A stretch of 64,000 nt of DNA, taken from contig NZ_JAQZAN010000001.1 in NCBI RefSeq assembly GCF_028737255.1, forward strand, positions 248,001 through 312,000. Direction: 5' to 3'. Below, one piece after another: positions 37,103 through 42,606 of this stretch. Source of the stretch: Actinomycetospora straminea. Its GTDB lineage: Bacteria > Actinomycetota > Actinomycetes > Mycobacteriales > Pseudonocardiaceae. The translations under genes and the position numbers were made by a program. Numbering within the stretch: position 1 is the stretch's first letter; each line of letters begins with the position of its first letter. Below the pieces are notes generated by a model, which had not been told where the DNA came from, searched no databases, and worked only from the letters and a program-made list of their open reading frames with translations.

Positions 37103-37131
37103 GGGGAACTCCGGGGCCCTCCGCGACGACG
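37103..37131 (+). promoter_or_regulatory. ECF-type promoter 1, before the sigma-factor gene
   Basis: GGGGAACTCCGG at 37103 gives a -35 element GGGAAC, followed after exactly 17 bases by CGACG (37127-37131) as the -10. The start of transcription would be about 45 bases before the GTG of the sigma gene. The pattern recurs at 37752, 38790 and on the minus strand at 42606. Confidence 0.7.
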
Positions 37132-37183
37132 CGCACCGTGGCAGGACCGCCCGGGAGACGGCGGGACGCGACGAGGAGCACGG

Positions 37184-37735
37184 GTGGACGACGCGAGGAT
37201 CACCGCGCTGGCGCTGCGCGCCCGGGACGGCGACCGGGCCGCCGCGGGCGAGTTCGTGGCGGCCACGCAGGCACAGGTCTTCCGGCTGCTCGCGCACCTC
37301 GCCGACCCGTCGGTCGCGGAGGAGCTCGCCCAGGAGTGCTACGAGCGCGCGCTCGGCTCGCTGCGGCGCTACCGCGGCGACGCCCCGGCCCGCAGCTGGC
37401 TGCTCGCGATCGCGCGGCGGGTCGCCGCCGACCACCTGCGCCGCCGCGCCCGCCGCCCGGTCGCGCCCGCCGAGCCCGCCGAGGACGACCGCCCCCTCGG
37501 CCGCGCGCCGCAGTCCGACCCGGCCGAGTCCGCCGCCGTCCGGGACGCCCTCGCCGCCCTCGACACCGACCGCCGCGAGGCGTTCGTGCTCACCCAGGTG
37601 ATCGGGCTGAGCTACGAGGACGCCGCCTCCGTGTGCCGCTGCCCGGTCGGGACGATCCGCTCCCGCGTCGCGCGGGCCCGCGCCGACCTCGTCGAGGCGC
37701 TGGGCGAGCCGTCGGCGCAGCGGCGGTCCGGGTGA
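37184..37735 (+). CDS. ECF RNA polymerase sigma factor
   Basis: A 183-residue group 4 sigma factor. Region 2 includes LAQECYERALGSLRRYRG and ARSWLLAIARRVAADHLRRR (-10 recognition helix), and region 4 includes REAFVLTQVIGLSYEDAASV followed by CRCPVGTIRSRVARARADLV (-35 recognition helix). It resembles SigC/SigK-like actinobacterial ECFs with a zinc-finger anti-sigma partner. GTG 37184 has GAGGAG upstream. Its promoter at 37103 matches those of the anti-sigma, DsbA-like and VKOR genes, so it probably drives its own transcription and that of the module. Confidence 0.92.
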   Translation: MDDARITALALRARDGDRAAAGEFVAATQAQVFRLLAHLADPSVAEELAQECYERALGSLRRYRGDAPARSWLLAIARRVAADHLRRRARRPVAPAEPAEDDRPLGRAPQSDPAESAAVRDALAALDTDRREAFVLTQVIGLSYEDAASVCRCPVGTIRSRVARARADLVEALGEPSAQRRSG

Positions 37736-37750
37736 GCGCCCCGGTCTCCC

Positions 37751-37779
37751 CGGGAACTCCGGCCCCCCGCGCGACGACC
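37751..37779 (+). promoter_or_regulatory. ECF-type promoter 2, before the anti-sigma gene
   Basis: GGGAAC at 37752-37757, 17 bases, then CGACC at 37775-37779. Eight bases separate the -10 from the GTG at 37788, so this transcript would be leaderless. It is an internal promoter, placed in the short gap between the sigma and anti-sigma genes. Confidence 0.65.
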
Positions 37780-37787
37780 AGCACGGC

Positions 37788-39610: not shown

Positions 39611-39627
39611 CCCCGCCGCCACCTCGA

Positions 39628-39688
39628 GATCAGCAGGGCGAAACGCACCTCTCGAGGTCCCTCTCAGGTGCGCTTCGCCCTGCTGATC
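39628..39688. terminator. long interrupted palindrome between convergent DsbA-like and ATPase genes
   Basis: Arms 39628-39650 and 39666-39688 match at 22 of 23 positions (core CAGCAGGGCGAA / TTCGCCCTGCTG, then one mismatch) over a 15-base loop. A second inverted pair, ACCTCGAG (39621-39628) and CTCGAGGT (39651-39658), overlaps it, so alternative structures are possible. The right arm overlaps the stop codon of the ATPase gene. Confidence 0.75.
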
Positions 39689-41893
39689 ACGGCGACGAGC
39701 CGCGCAGCCGCAAGCTCGAGGTGACGACGAGCAGCGACGACAGGGCCATCGCGAGCCCCGCGAGCAGCGGGTTGAGCAGGCCCGCGACGGCCAGGGGGAT
39801 CGCCGCGACGTTGTAGCCGAACGCCCAGCCGAGGTTCACGCGGATCGTGCGGTGGGTCGCACGGGCGAGGGCGAGCGCCTCGGGGACGGCGGTGAGGTCG
39901 TCGCGCACGAGGATGACGTCGGCGGCCTCGAGCGCGACGTCGGTGCCCGTGCCGACGGCCAGGCCGAGGTCGGCGGCGGCGAGGGCCGGGCCGTCGTTGA
40001 CGCCGTCGCCGACCATCGCCACCACGGCCCCGGTCGCGCGCCGCGCCGCGCCGCGAGGAACGCGAGCTTCCCCTCGGGCAGCACGCCGGCCACGACCTCC
40101 TCGATCCCGAGGGCGTCGGCCACCGTGCGGGCCGCGCGTGCGTGGTCGCCGGACAGCAGCACCGGGTGCAGGCCCGCCGCCCGCAGCGCCGCCACCGCCG
40201 GGGCCGCGCTGGGCTTCACCTCGTCGGCGAGCACCACCGCGCCCCGCACCTCGCCGTCCCACCCGACGGCGACGACCGTGTGCCCCGCCGCCTCGGCCTC
40301 CGCCCACGCGGCACGCAGCGACGCCGGCACCGCGCCGACGAGGTCGGGGCGCCCGACGGTCACGGTCACCCCGTCGACCACCGCCCGGGCGCCGAGCCCC
40401 GGCAGCGCGACGAAGTCCTCGGGCTCGGCGACGGAGGACGAGCAGGCCCGCAGGATCGCGGCCGCGATCGCGTGCTCCGAGCCCCGCTCGACGGCGGCGG
40501 CCCGCTCCAGCACGTGGTCGCCGCCGAGGACGGTGACCACCGTCATCCGCCCGGTGGTCAGCGTCCCGGTCTTGTCGAGGACGACGGTGTCGACGCGACG
40601 GCTGGTCTCGAGCGCGTGGTGGCCCTTGAGGAAGACGCCGCGCTGCGCGCCCCGCCCGGACGCCACGACCATCGCCATCGGCGTCGCCAGCCCCAGCGCG
40701 CAGGGGCACGCGATGACGAGCACCGCGAGGGCGGGCGAGAACGCCCGCGCCGCGTCGCCGGTGCCGAGCCACCACGCCACCCCGGTGAGCACGGCGAGGA
40801 CCACGACCGCCGGCACGAACCACGCCGAGATCCGGTCGACGAGGCGCTGCACGTCGGCCTTGTCGGCGCGGGCGTCGCGGACCAGGCGCACCATCCCGGC
40901 GAGCGCGGTGGCTTCGCCGACCGCGGTCGCCTCGACGACCAACCAACCCGAGGTCGCCACCGTGCCCCCGACCACCCGGTCGCCGACACCGGCGTCGGCG
41001 GGCACCGGCTCGCCGGTGAGCATGCTGCGGTCCACCGCCGAGCGCCCGGCCACGACCCTCCCGTCCGCGGCGACCTTCTCCCCCGGGCGCACGACGAACC
41101 GCGCCCCCACCGCGAGGGACGCCACCGGGATCCGCCGCTCGGTGCCGTCCTCGCCGAGCACCGCGACGTCGCGGGCGGCGAGACGGGCGAGCGCGGCCAG
41201 CGCGTCCCCCGACGCCCGGCGGGCCCGGCGCTCGACGTAGCGCCCGGCCAGCACGAACGTCGTCACCCCCGCCGCGACCTCGAGGTACACCGGCCCGGTC
41301 GGGTGCAGCAGCAGCGCCCAGGTGCTGCCCGCGGACGCCACCGGAGGACCGGCGAGCACCGCCCCCAGCGACCACGCCGTCGCCGCCACGATGCCCAGCG
41401 ACACGAGCGTGTCCATCGACGTCGTCCCGTGCTGCAGCCCGGCGAGCGCGCGGCGGTGCAGCGGCCACGCCGACCACAGCACCACCGGCGCGGCGAGCAC
41501 GGCGAGCACCCACGGCCAGCCCGCGAAGCGCAGCGAGGGAACGGCGGTCATCGCGAGCGCGAGGTCGGCGACCGGCACGAAGAGCGCCGCGGCCACGACG
41601 AGCCGGCGCCACAGGTCGCGCAGCTCGGCGTCCTCGGCCGGGGCGTCCTCGGGCTCCTCTCCGGTGGGACGGGCCGGGCGGGCCGTGTACCCGAGCTTCC
41701 CGACGGTGTCGACGATCGTCGCCGTCGTGACCTCGGGCGAGGACAGCACGACGCGGGCGCTGTCGCCCGCGAGGTCGACGGTCGCCGAGACGCCGTCGAG
41801 CCGGTTGAGCCGTCGCTCGATCCGCGCCGCGCACGCCGCGCAGGTCATGCCGCCGATCTCGAGGTCGAGCACCGGCGGCGCGACCGCCGTCAC
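39687..41893 (-). pseudogene. copper-type P1B ATPase with one frameshift
   Basis: All domains of a heavy-metal P-type ATPase are present across two frames: an N-terminal metal-binding domain (LEIGGMTCAACAARIERRL), membrane helices, the actuator motif SMLTGEPVPADAG, the transport site VIACPCALGLATP, phosphorylation site VVLDKTGTLTTG, nucleotide motif SEHAIAAAI, and hinge VAMVGDGVNDGPALAAADLG. The frame changes in a GGCGCGGCGCGGCGCGCG run near 40040-40055, after LPEGKLAFLAARRG; one added base restores ATGAVVAMVGDGVND. Because everything else is intact, a sequencing error, a recent mutation or slippage at the repeat are all possible. GTG 41893 overlaps the VKOR stop as GTGA. Confidence 0.85.
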
Positions 41894-42570
41894 AGGCCCA
41901 CCAGCCCCGCCGCCCACTCGGGGAACGTCGCGACGATCGCGACGACGATCGCCAGGTACCAGGCCGCCAGCCCCCAGCCGTGCCGGCGCAGCGGCGCCGA
42001 GGCACCGCCGAGGCGTCCCGCGCGCAGGTTCGCCACGGTGACGGCCCAGAACATCGCGATCACCGCGACCCACGCGACCATGCACCACGGGCACAGCGCG
42101 TGGATCACCGCGAGGCTCTGCACGATCAACCAGTGGACCAACAGCATCCCGGCGGTGGTGCCGGCCTGCAGCGACCACCACGCCCAGCGGGGCAGGGCCA
42201 CGCCGCCGAGCACCAGGGCGCCCATCGCCGCCGCGACCGGGAAGGTCAGCAGGCCGAGCACCGGGTTGGGGAAGCCGAGCAGCGACGCCTGCCAGGTCCT
42301 CATGATCGTGCCGCAGGACAGCACCGGGTCGATGCTGCACGACGGCACGAACGTCGGGTCGGCGAGCAGCGCCAACTTGTCCAGCAGCAGGACGAGCGAC
42401 ACCACCGCGCCGGCGAGCCCGCCGACGAGCAGCACGGCGCCGGTCCCGCGCGCCGGGGCGACCTCCACGACGGCCGGCTCCGAGCGCCCCGGGGCGGCCG
42501 CGACGTCCACCCCGCGATCGTCCCCCCGCACGACGGACAGGACCTCGGTGGGTGCAGTTCGGCTGACCAC
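41890..42570 (-). CDS. vitamin K epoxide reductase (VKOR) family, DsbB-like
   Basis: A 226-residue membrane protein with four or five helices. The conserved outer loop has DPTFVPSCSIDPVLSCGTIM, holding the loop Cys pair and a Ser/Thr region typical of bacterial VKOR; the active-site CxxC is in IHALCPWCMVAWVAV. It would reoxidise a DsbA-like partner and pass electrons to menaquinone. The GTG at 42570 was chosen because it lies exactly eight bases after the -10 of promoter 4, as at the anti-sigma gene; a later GTG at 42531 with a GAGG site is the alternative. It forms an operon with the copper ATPase. Confidence 0.9.
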   Translation of the reverse strand: MVSRTAPTEVLSVVRGDDRGVDVAAAPGRSEPAVVEVAPARGTGAVLLVGGLAGAVVSLVLLLDKLALLADPTFVPSCSIDPVLSCGTIMRTWQASLLGFPNPVLGLLTFPVAAAMGALVLGGVALPRWAWWSLQAGTTAGMLLVHWLIVQSLAVIHALCPWCMVAWVAVIAMFWAVTVANLRAGRLGGASAPLRRHGWGLAAWYLAIVVAIVATFPEWAAGLVGL

Positions 42571-42578
42571 GAACTGCT

Positions 42579-42606
42579 GGTCGCGCGCCGGCCCGCCGGA
42601 GTTCCC
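42579..42606 (-). promoter_or_regulatory. ECF-type promoter 4, before VKOR-ATPase
   Basis: On the minus strand GGGAACTCCGG starts at 42606, and CGACC follows the GGGAAC after exactly 17 bases (42583-42579). The next eight bases lead to the GTG at 42570, implying a leaderless transcript with the same geometry as promoter 2. Confidence 0.7.

What the first reader, a model, noticed from the sequence alone, without database searches (positions are those of the whole stretch)
37103..42606. Four identical-geometry ECF promoters tie sigma, anti-sigma, DsbA-like, and VKOR/copper-ATPase into one regulon
GGGAAC-N17-CGAC occurs before the sigma gene (37104), the anti-sigma gene (37752), the DsbA-like gene (38790) and, on the other strand, the VKOR-ATPase operon (42606). 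All four have GGGAACTCC and the same 17-base gap, although the gap sequences differ. At two sites the -10 ends exactly eight bases before a GTG, implying leaderless mRNAs. Together the genes form an oxidative-folding pair (DsbA/VKOR) plus copper export, so this looks like an autoregulated response linking periplasmic disulfide formation and copper.
Basis: partly seen in the sequence, partly recalled or inferred. Interest (0 to 1): 0.85.

Follow-up and report, generated by a model that had tools for sequence, protein, structure and literature searches.

The report
SigC-like copper and disulfide gene switch
A soil actinobacterium carries a self-controlled genetic switch, related to one that other actinobacteria use when copper runs short, in which a membrane-bound inhibitor and the enzymes that make disulfide bonds outside the cell sit under the same kind of promoter as the switch itself.

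Summary
GGGAAC-N17-CGAC stands before the sigma, anti-sigma, DsbA-like and VKOR-ATPase genes. In eight syntenic Actinomycetospora loci it precedes sigma 8/8, anti-sigma 8/8, dsbA 7/8 and VKOR 7/7, with changed spacers. All 17 genus genomes with a VKOR (of 18) keep the site at one copy, five of them clearly unlinked from the sigma gene. In 80 named relatives spacing 17 gives 159 hits, other spacings 4-31, and 69 of 74 anti-sigma-cluster sites put ATG/GTG nine bases after CGAC: probably leaderless mRNA. Genome-wide the bare motif is only weakly enriched.

The motif fits the C. glutamicum sigma-C consensus (PMC5483222); the sigma groups with SigC but misses the SigC cut-off. SigC serves copper starvation, so "copper export" should probably read copper supply. 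New parts: a dedicated four-helix zinc-finger anti-sigma with invariant polar residues predicted near the outer face, fused in frame to SigC in 11 of 17 inferred mycobacterial loci, and a DsbA/VKOR arm. Copper sensing is inferred, untested.

The parts
37104..37130 (+). SigC-type promoter of the sigma gene (autoregulation), GGGAAC-N17-CGAC
   Evidence: conserved in 8 of 8 syntenic genus loci
37184..37735 (+). ECF sigma factor of the SigC group (183 aa, GTG start)
   Evidence: Sigma70_r2 and r4_2 over cut-off; best NCBIfam models PRK12535 and SigC PRK09649, both below their cut-offs; groups with mycobacterial SigC-like sigmas, support 94/96
37752..37778 (+). SigC-type promoter of the anti-sigma gene; GTG nine bases downstream (leaderless)
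   Evidence: ATG/GTG exactly nine bases after CGAC at 69 of 74 related sites
37788..38540 (+). Membrane anti-sigma factor: N-terminal zinc-finger (Hx3Cx2C) domain plus four predicted long helices with invariant H127, E131, D174, R184, H188
   Evidence: zf-HC2 41.9 bits; 50-row alignment A2; AlphaFold2 model, mean pLDDT 82.8; Foldseek hits to MucA and RsiW anti-sigma domains, all E > 0.001
38790..38816 (+). SigC-type promoter of the DsbA-like gene
   Evidence: 7 of 8 syntenic loci, missing in L065
38870..39610 (+). DsbA-like thiol oxidoreductase with an N-terminal hydrophobic stretch and a CPAC motif (start chosen by eye)
   Evidence: Thioredoxin_4 48.4 bits; DSBA below its cut-off
42580..42606 (-). 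SigC-type promoter of the VKOR-ATPase operon; GTG nine bases downstream
   Evidence: 7 of 7 syntenic loci that reach it; a site at one VKOR gene in all 17 genus genomes with a VKOR
41890..42570 (-). VKOR-family membrane disulfide oxidase, the only VKOR found in this genome
   Evidence: VKOR 130.8 bits; one match in the genome at E <= 0.001
39687..41893 (-). P1B-type ATPase (CtpA/CtpB-like); start overlaps the VKOR stop; reading frame broken near 39836-40050 in this assembly
   Evidence: TIGR01525 over cut-off, TIGR01511 (Cu) below cut-off on the cut frame; ORFs; one open frame in relatives L102 and L107; 53-56% identity of its relatives to the mycobacterial ATPases
34386..36805 (-). Divergent genes: 82-aa Cys-rich protein, DUF5134 membrane protein, PepSY_TM protein; no SigC site found here, but relatives of each have one in some other species

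Best explanation
This is a SigC-group (ECF36-type) regulon. The sigma factor transcribes its own gene, its anti-sigma gene (as leaderless mRNA), a DsbA-like gene and a VKOR-copper ATPase operon, all from GGGAAC-N17-CGAC promoters. Shown by sequence: the sites, their conservation, the gene families and the recurrent sigma/anti-sigma pairing. Inferred: the zinc-finger domain of the anti-sigma holds the sigma at the membrane. A ligand site at the outer face of its four helices (invariant His127, Glu131, Asp174, Arg184 and His188, beside a variable His/Met-rich loop) reads copper, or the state of the copper-dependent respiratory chain. When copper is short the sigma is released and the operons switch on: the ATPase supplies copper to exported copper enzymes, and DsbA/VKOR raises disulfide formation outside the membrane. 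The rise in anti-sigma then shuts the response off.
For: Motif position and count. Conservation with diverged spacers in syntenic loci. Spacing 17: 159 hits against 4-31 at the other spacings 10-25, reversed control 1, in 80 named loci. Recurrent downstream families (three frames corrected): anti-sigma cluster 74 loci, sigma 22, VKOR 9, dsbA 7, PepSY_TM 5, Caa3_CtaG oxidase assembly 4, P1B ATPase without VKOR 3, YcnI/DUF1775 2, MauE followed by a dsbA-like gene 2. VKOR keeps the site in five genomes where it is unlinked from the sigma gene. Sigma gene within 2.5 kb of the anti-sigma gene in 66 of 80 loci. In-frame anti-sigma-SigC fusion in 11 of 17 inferred mycobacterial loci; all seven mycobacterial sigmas tested are over the SigC cut-off. 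Promoter fits the C. glutamicum sigma-C consensus GGGAACT/CGACTA (PMC5483222, passages). SigC group role at low copper (PMC7924339; PMC7337898). Anti-sigma residues and helices.
Against: The window sigma scores 152 bits on the SigC equivalog model, below its cut-off of 219; the tree support, 94/96, is just under the program's star. Genome-wide enrichment of the motif is weak here and absent in several inferred mycobacteria, such as G110 with 24 matches against 27 in the reversed control. No SigC site stands before the divergent PepSY/DUF5134 genes here or before the genome's three Caa3_CtaG genes. No strict site before the anti-sigma gene in 4 of 8 second-subclade loci (L069, L071, L073, L075), in 8 of 24 other family or order loci and in 6 of 80 named loci. 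Two recurrent families (a UDP-glucose-dehydrogenase-like and a P450-like protein) and 21 singletons have no evident copper link. DUF2275, named in a review for ECF36 anti-sigmas, was not matched. The ATPase frame is broken in this assembly. There are no transcription, binding or metal data; copper sensing rests on residue conservation and gene content only.
Confidence: 0.7

Rival explanations
1. Copper-excess or envelope-stress defence: a CopA1-type pump exports surplus copper, and DsbA/VKOR repairs proteins mis-oxidised by copper.
For: The ATPase is P1B type, and most bacterial copper P-type ATPases export Cu(I), as stated in PMC9147137. DsbA-like and VKOR proteins are oxidative-folding enzymes.
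Against: In relatives the same promoter stands before Caa3_CtaG, YcnI and PepSY_TM genes and, in the inferred Mycobacterium loci L219 and L220, before a PPE-led operon that in L219 holds TauD and AMP-binding (chalkophore-type) genes. SigC of M. tuberculosis and sigma-C of C. glutamicum respond to copper lack (PMC7924339, PMC7337898, passages).
Confidence: 0.14
2. The anti-sigma senses thiol oxidation through its own zinc site, as RsrA or RslA do (recalled), and the regulon is a disulfide-stress response; copper is only one source of oxidant.
For: Invariant Cys7, His33, Cys37 and Cys40; weak match to the RsrA model, 24 bits against a cut-off of 62.5; DsbA and VKOR among the targets.
Against: The four hydrophobic helices carry invariant polar residues near their outer ends, not needed for cytosolic thiol sensing. 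No thioredoxin-reductase or mycothiol gene was recognised among the 11 recurrent target families (names by model or by eye).
Confidence: 0.11
3. The conserved motif is an operator for a DNA-binding regulator rather than a sigma promoter.
For: Strong conservation of two blocks at a fixed spacing.
Against: The blocks fit the sigma-C consensus, and a sigma-C promoter was confirmed in vitro and in vivo in C. glutamicum (PMC5483222, passages); the fixed nine bases to a start codon fit -35/-10 geometry; the motif is directional and not palindromic.
Confidence: 0.03

Closest known systems
Corynebacterium glutamicum sigma-C regulon (Toyoda and Inui 2016, not held; known here through passages of PMC5483222 and PMC7337898)
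   Same: Promoter consensus GGGAACT and CGACTA in the discussion of PMC5483222 (its introduction prints GGAAAC and CGACT); a target described as an iron-regulated membrane protein (cg2556); regulon tied to copper deprivation and aa3 oxidase defects.
   Different: The passages read mention no anti-sigma for sigma-C and no DsbA/VKOR target.
Mycobacterium tuberculosis SigC (ECF36) copper-starvation response (PMC7924339, PMC8999054, passages)
   Same: Same sigma group by tree and model hits; targets include the CtpB ATPase.
   Different: Reported as monocistronic, apparently not autoregulated and with no anti-SigC identified as of 2021; here sigma and anti-sigma are neighbours, both under the motif.
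ECF36 sigmas fused to an N-terminal membrane anti-sigma (PMC8999054); SigC-Rv0093c fusion in the M. avium complex (PMC7563442), passages
   Same: Same pairing of a three-to-four-helix anti-sigma with this sigma group; 11 in-frame fusions seen here.
   Different: In the window the two are separate genes; the review names DUF2275, not matched here.
Streptomyces CutRS control of VKOR (PMC10433416, passages)
   Same: An envelope regulator controls VKOR in an actinobacterium.
   Different: Two-component system proposed to answer secretion stress, not a copper-linked sigma factor.
Myxococcus CorE, a copper-dependent ECF sigma (PMC8999054, passages)
   Same: ECF sigma answering to copper.
   Different: Senses copper in its own C-terminal Cys-rich domain rather than through an anti-sigma.

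Membership tests
SigC (NCBIfam NF007231, PRK09649 equivalog) | Score over the curated cut-off of 219 bits | tested here: not met
   152.3 bits; still the best of 26 matches in the genome, E 6.0e-44, the next being 2.5e-18
SigC group (ECF36-type) | Groups with SigC rather than with other ECF sigmas of the same genome | tested here: met
   25 SigC-like rows against 7 other ECFs (7 of the 25 other matches), one side of a branch, support 94/96, just under the star; the label ECF36 comes from PMC8999054 and was not tested
SigC / sigma-C regulon | Promoter -35 GGGAACT and -10 CGACTA | tested here: met
   All four window sites have GGGAACT and CGAC; the next two bases are CA at three and GC at one, not TA. 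Relatives: Y at position 7 and YA after CGAC over 133 sites chosen by the core
SigC / sigma-C regulon | Induction by copper limitation or aa3 oxidase defect | not testable with these tools
   No expression data
Zinc-binding anti-sigma factors (ZAS) | Hx3Cx2C motif (recalled) and zf-HC2 domain | tested here: met
   H33, C37, C40 invariant in 50 rows; zf-HC2 41.9 bits over 22.2
Zinc-binding anti-sigma factors (ZAS) | Anti-sigma-domain fold | tested here: inconclusive
   Foldseek probability 0.96-1.00 to MucA and RsiW, but all E above 0.001, and unrelated CD53 also reaches 0.97
ECF36 anti-sigma with DUF2275 | DUF2275 domain | tested here: not met
   Not among Pfam matches at E up to 0.01
VKOR | Pfam VKOR over cut-off | tested here: met
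   130.8 bits over 27.5
DsbA | Pfam DSBA over cut-off | tested here: not met
   21.5 against 25.6; Thioredoxin_4 is met at 48.4, so called DsbA-like
Copper P1B ATPase | TIGR01511 (Cu) over cut-off | tested here: inconclusive
   352.7 against 397 on a frame cut by the break; TIGR01525 (heavy metal) is met

The most novel reading that the evidence does not exclude
The four-helix zinc-finger protein is the general anti-SigC factor of actinobacteria and a direct membrane copper sensor that reads the outside through its His/Glu/Asp site. Disulfide formation by DsbA/VKOR is a built-in arm of the copper-starvation response, because copper ions otherwise help to oxidise exported thiols.
Probability: 0.3. 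Interest if true: 0.85.

Novelty: new variant of a known kind. Interest (0 to 1): 0.62.

Why it matters
How SigC is switched on at low copper was stated as open in 2021, with no anti-SigC factor identified (PMC7924339, passages). This locus pairs a SigC-group sigma with a dedicated membrane anti-sigma under one conserved promoter, and names the residues to test. It also ties disulfide formation to copper supply: each of the 17 Actinomycetospora genomes in which a VKOR was found keeps this promoter on a VKOR gene, also where that gene is unlinked, which predicts that cells short of copper need extra enzymatic thiol oxidation.

Tried and rejected
Other regulon members in this genome: of 30 held matches (of 34), none beyond the cluster looked convincing; an SDF-family symporter gene (L007) has its ATG one base past the site, too close for a normal start. 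A SigC site for the window's own PepSY/DUF5134/82-aa genes: none, strict or relaxed. A SigC site at the genome's Caa3_CtaG genes: none in the stretches held. A weight-matrix scan of the window: only the four sites and the coding match at 22134 scored above 18 bits. The automatic frame choice filed three VKOR-ATPase operons (L103, L104, L105) under the ATPase; corrected. I first took the mycobacterial PPE hits for a ppe1-nrp operon; only L219 (by Pfam) and L220 (by eye) show such genes downstream, while L221 has MmpS/MmpL-type genes. I first counted seven unlinked VKOR genes; in G005 and G013 the sigma cluster is cut by a contig end, so linkage is unknown there and five remain. 'Mycobacterium' for the unnamed genus g50 is inferred from PPE content and SigC scores. 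Rv0093c itself was not compared; its link rests on one passage of PMC7563442 and on recall. Of the 74 anti-sigma-cluster sites, L110 is a short zinc-finger paralogue and L111 a mis-assigned frame; both are left in the counts. Anti-SigC literature: searches listed no paper on an experimentally shown anti-SigC, in the held open-access library only; two papers mention predicted fused ones. Toyoda and Inui 2016 and Morosov 2018 are not held.
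Full report
The window is G000:C11:248001-312000 of a 6.29 Mb draft genome in 56 contigs. Same-genus genomes correspond to named Actinomycetospora records (for example G008:C27 and A. lemnae, both 437,100 bases and the same stretch). GC is 69-80% in 2-kb steps.

Observation. Chance is unlikely for four within 5.5 kb: the longer form has six matches in the whole genome, four of them here, against none for the pattern read backwards. Genome-wide, however, the bare motif is only modestly enriched: GGGAACY-N16-CGAC has 18 matches against 11 at a phase-matched spacing.

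Conservation. In eight syntenic genus loci (L061-L068) the strict motif precedes the sigma gene in 8 of 8, the anti-sigma gene in 8 of 8, dsbA in 7 of 8 (not L065) and VKOR in 7 of 7 (the L066 contig ends before it), with different spacers. In a second set of genus loci (L069-L076) it is patchier: before the anti-sigma gene in 4 of 8, with other sites before PepSY_TM, DUF5134 or a short zinc-finger gene. In 24 other loci of the family and order it precedes the anti-sigma gene in 16. The best single test is VKOR. A search of 18 genus genomes found VKOR in 17. In all 17 one VKOR gene has a strict site upstream: eight in the cluster, the window included; two in a looser cluster (L070, L074); five unlinked from the sigma gene (L236, L237, L238, L241, L242; 0.93 Mb apart in the one-contig genome G003); and two on other contigs with linkage unknown (L240, L243). 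Of five extra VKOR copies, four lack it and one (L248) has a match with no in-frame start.

Across 80 named loci fetched by the anti-sigma alignment (80 best of 295 confirmed; 1.54 Mb), spacing 17 has 159 matches; spacings 10-16 and 18-25 have 4-31; the reversed control has 1 at 17. Of the 159, 155 had a candidate downstream frame, and clustering those gave recurrent families: anti-sigma in 74 loci, sigma in 22, dsbA 7, VKOR 6, P1B ATPase 6, PepSY_TM 5, Caa3_CtaG 4, a UDP-glucose-dehydrogenase-like protein 3, YcnI (DUF1775) 2, a cytochrome-P450-like protein 2, MauE 2; 21 clusters were confined to one locus (the dehydrogenase and P450 names are by eye). Three of the six ATPase entries (L103, L104, L105) are VKOR-ATPase operons read in the wrong frame, so VKOR is 9 and ATPase alone 3. 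In the two Pseudonocardia loci MauE is followed by a dsbA-like gene. At 69 of the 74 anti-sigma-cluster sites ATG or GTG starts exactly nine bases after CGAC, and 11 of 74 have a Shine-Dalgarno-like tetramer before it. That is the geometry of a leaderless transcript. Six of the 80 loci have no such site.

Identity. The sigma has ECF regions 2 and 4. Its best curated models are PRK12535 (171 bits) and SigC (152 bits), both under their cut-offs. In the tree it sits in one group with mycobacterial and other SigC-like sigmas, apart from seven other ECFs of its genome (support 94/96, just under the program's star; several of those seven have long branches). Seven of seven mycobacterial sigmas tested and that of Amycolatopsis sp. 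MtRt-6 pass the SigC cut-off; that of Pseudonocardia L159 does not. The sites chosen by their core also share C or T at position 7 and CA/TA after CGAC, which fits the sigma-C consensus printed for C. glutamicum (-35 GGGAACT, -10 CGACTA in the discussion of PMC5483222; its introduction prints GGAAAC and CGACT; passages). I therefore call it SigC-like and do not file it as a SigC equivalog.

Anti-sigma. It has an N-terminal zinc-finger domain and four long helices at 76-110, 125-148, 150-176 and 182-204 in a model of mean pLDDT 82.8. The N-terminal part resembles MucA and RsiW anti-sigma domains in Foldseek, though no hit has E below 0.001. In 50 relatives Cys7, His33, Cys37, Cys40, His127, Glu131, Trp135, Asn136, Asp174, Arg184 and His188 are among the invariant residues. 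If the zinc finger is cytosolic, as it must be to hold the sigma, His127, Glu131, Asp174, Arg184 and His188 all fall at the outer ends of helices (inference from the helix limits; no distances were measured). A sensor site for copper, or for something that reports copper such as a quinol or heme, is the likeliest reading.

Pairing. The sigma gene lies within 2.5 kb of the anti-sigma gene in 66 of 80 loci, 42 divergent and 24 in tandem. Among 19 inferred Mycobacterium genomes searched 17 have a long anti-sigma match; five genomes of other genera searched with them have none. In 11 of the 17 fetched loci anti-sigma and SigC form one open frame; three have both genes apart in the same stretch, three have no sigma gene in the stretch. 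Strict sites occur in 14 of the 17 stretches, although the pattern is not enriched over whole mycobacterial genomes (for example G066 37 against 35, G110 24 against 27 in the reversed control). The sites inspected lie before PPE genes, P1B ATPases, PepSY_TM, DUF5134 and the anti-sigma gene. In L219 and L220 the order is sigC, ATPase, anti-sigma, a methyltransferase-like gene and a PPE-led operon, with sites before ATPase, anti-sigma and PPE; in L219 Pfam finds PPE, TauD, an AMP ligase and a second, long AMP-binding protein cut by the end of the stretch, which I read as NRPS-like. Such fusions are in print: ECF36 members fused to membrane anti-sigmas (PMC8999054) and SigC-Rv0093c in the M. avium complex (PMC7563442).

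Function. SigC is needed at low copper in M. tuberculosis and, when induced, raises ctpB and the nrp operon; the same paper says no anti-SigC factor was identified (PMC7924339). C. glutamicum sigma-C is activated by copper deprivation or disturbed heme a insertion (PMC7337898). CtpB is argued to be an importer or a high-affinity exporter that feeds the oxidase (PMC9147137). By these parallels the window's regulon is a copper-supply and respiration response, not copper detoxification. The DsbA/VKOR arm is the unexpected part. It may replace thiol oxidation that copper ions normally aid, or mature copper-carrying proteins, or both; none of this was tested.

Limits. There is no expression or binding evidence; the window's ATPase frame is broken; the gene set at this locus is smaller than in relatives (no Caa3_CtaG between anti-sigma and dsbA, as in L102 and L107; the genome's three such genes have no site in the stretches held).

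Noticed in passing
window 39836-40050 (-): The copper ATPase reading frame shifts near its C-terminal third; the two parts lie in different frames, while relatives L102 and L107 have one open frame. Sequencing error or decay cannot be told apart.
   Followed up: partly
window 38541-38780: In relatives L102 and L107 a Caa3_CtaG oxidase-assembly gene lies between anti-sigma and dsbA; here that space is short and holds repeats of GCAGCGAAGGACGCC (by eye).
   Followed up: partly
window 36970-37055: Upstream of the sigma and 82-aa genes a direct repeat TTCTCAGG (22-base period) and an inverted repeat CTACCGT...ACGGTAG are largely conserved in nine genus sequences: possible operators of another regulator, perhaps a two-component system.
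   Followed up: no
L111 8603-8656: Two SigC-type sites stand back to back on opposite strands, each nine bases before a start codon: one for DUF5134, one for a short zinc-finger protein with a Cys-rich tail.
   Followed up: partly
L103 4630 (-), L104 7180 (-), L105 6666 (-): A UDP-glucose-dehydrogenase-like gene (by eye) carries a strict site in three Actinomycetospora; the sites in L104 and L105 have G at position 7 and nearly the same spacer (same genomes), so conservation may be coding rather than regulatory.
   Followed up: no
window 39627-39690: A long inverted repeat (by eye) lies between the convergent dsbA and ATPase genes, possibly a two-way terminator.
   Followed up: no
window 36557-36805 (-): An 82-aa Cys-rich protein (FCGQCSCGCPELYLD) without a Pfam match; a short relative has a SigC-type site upstream in L180.
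   Followed up: partly
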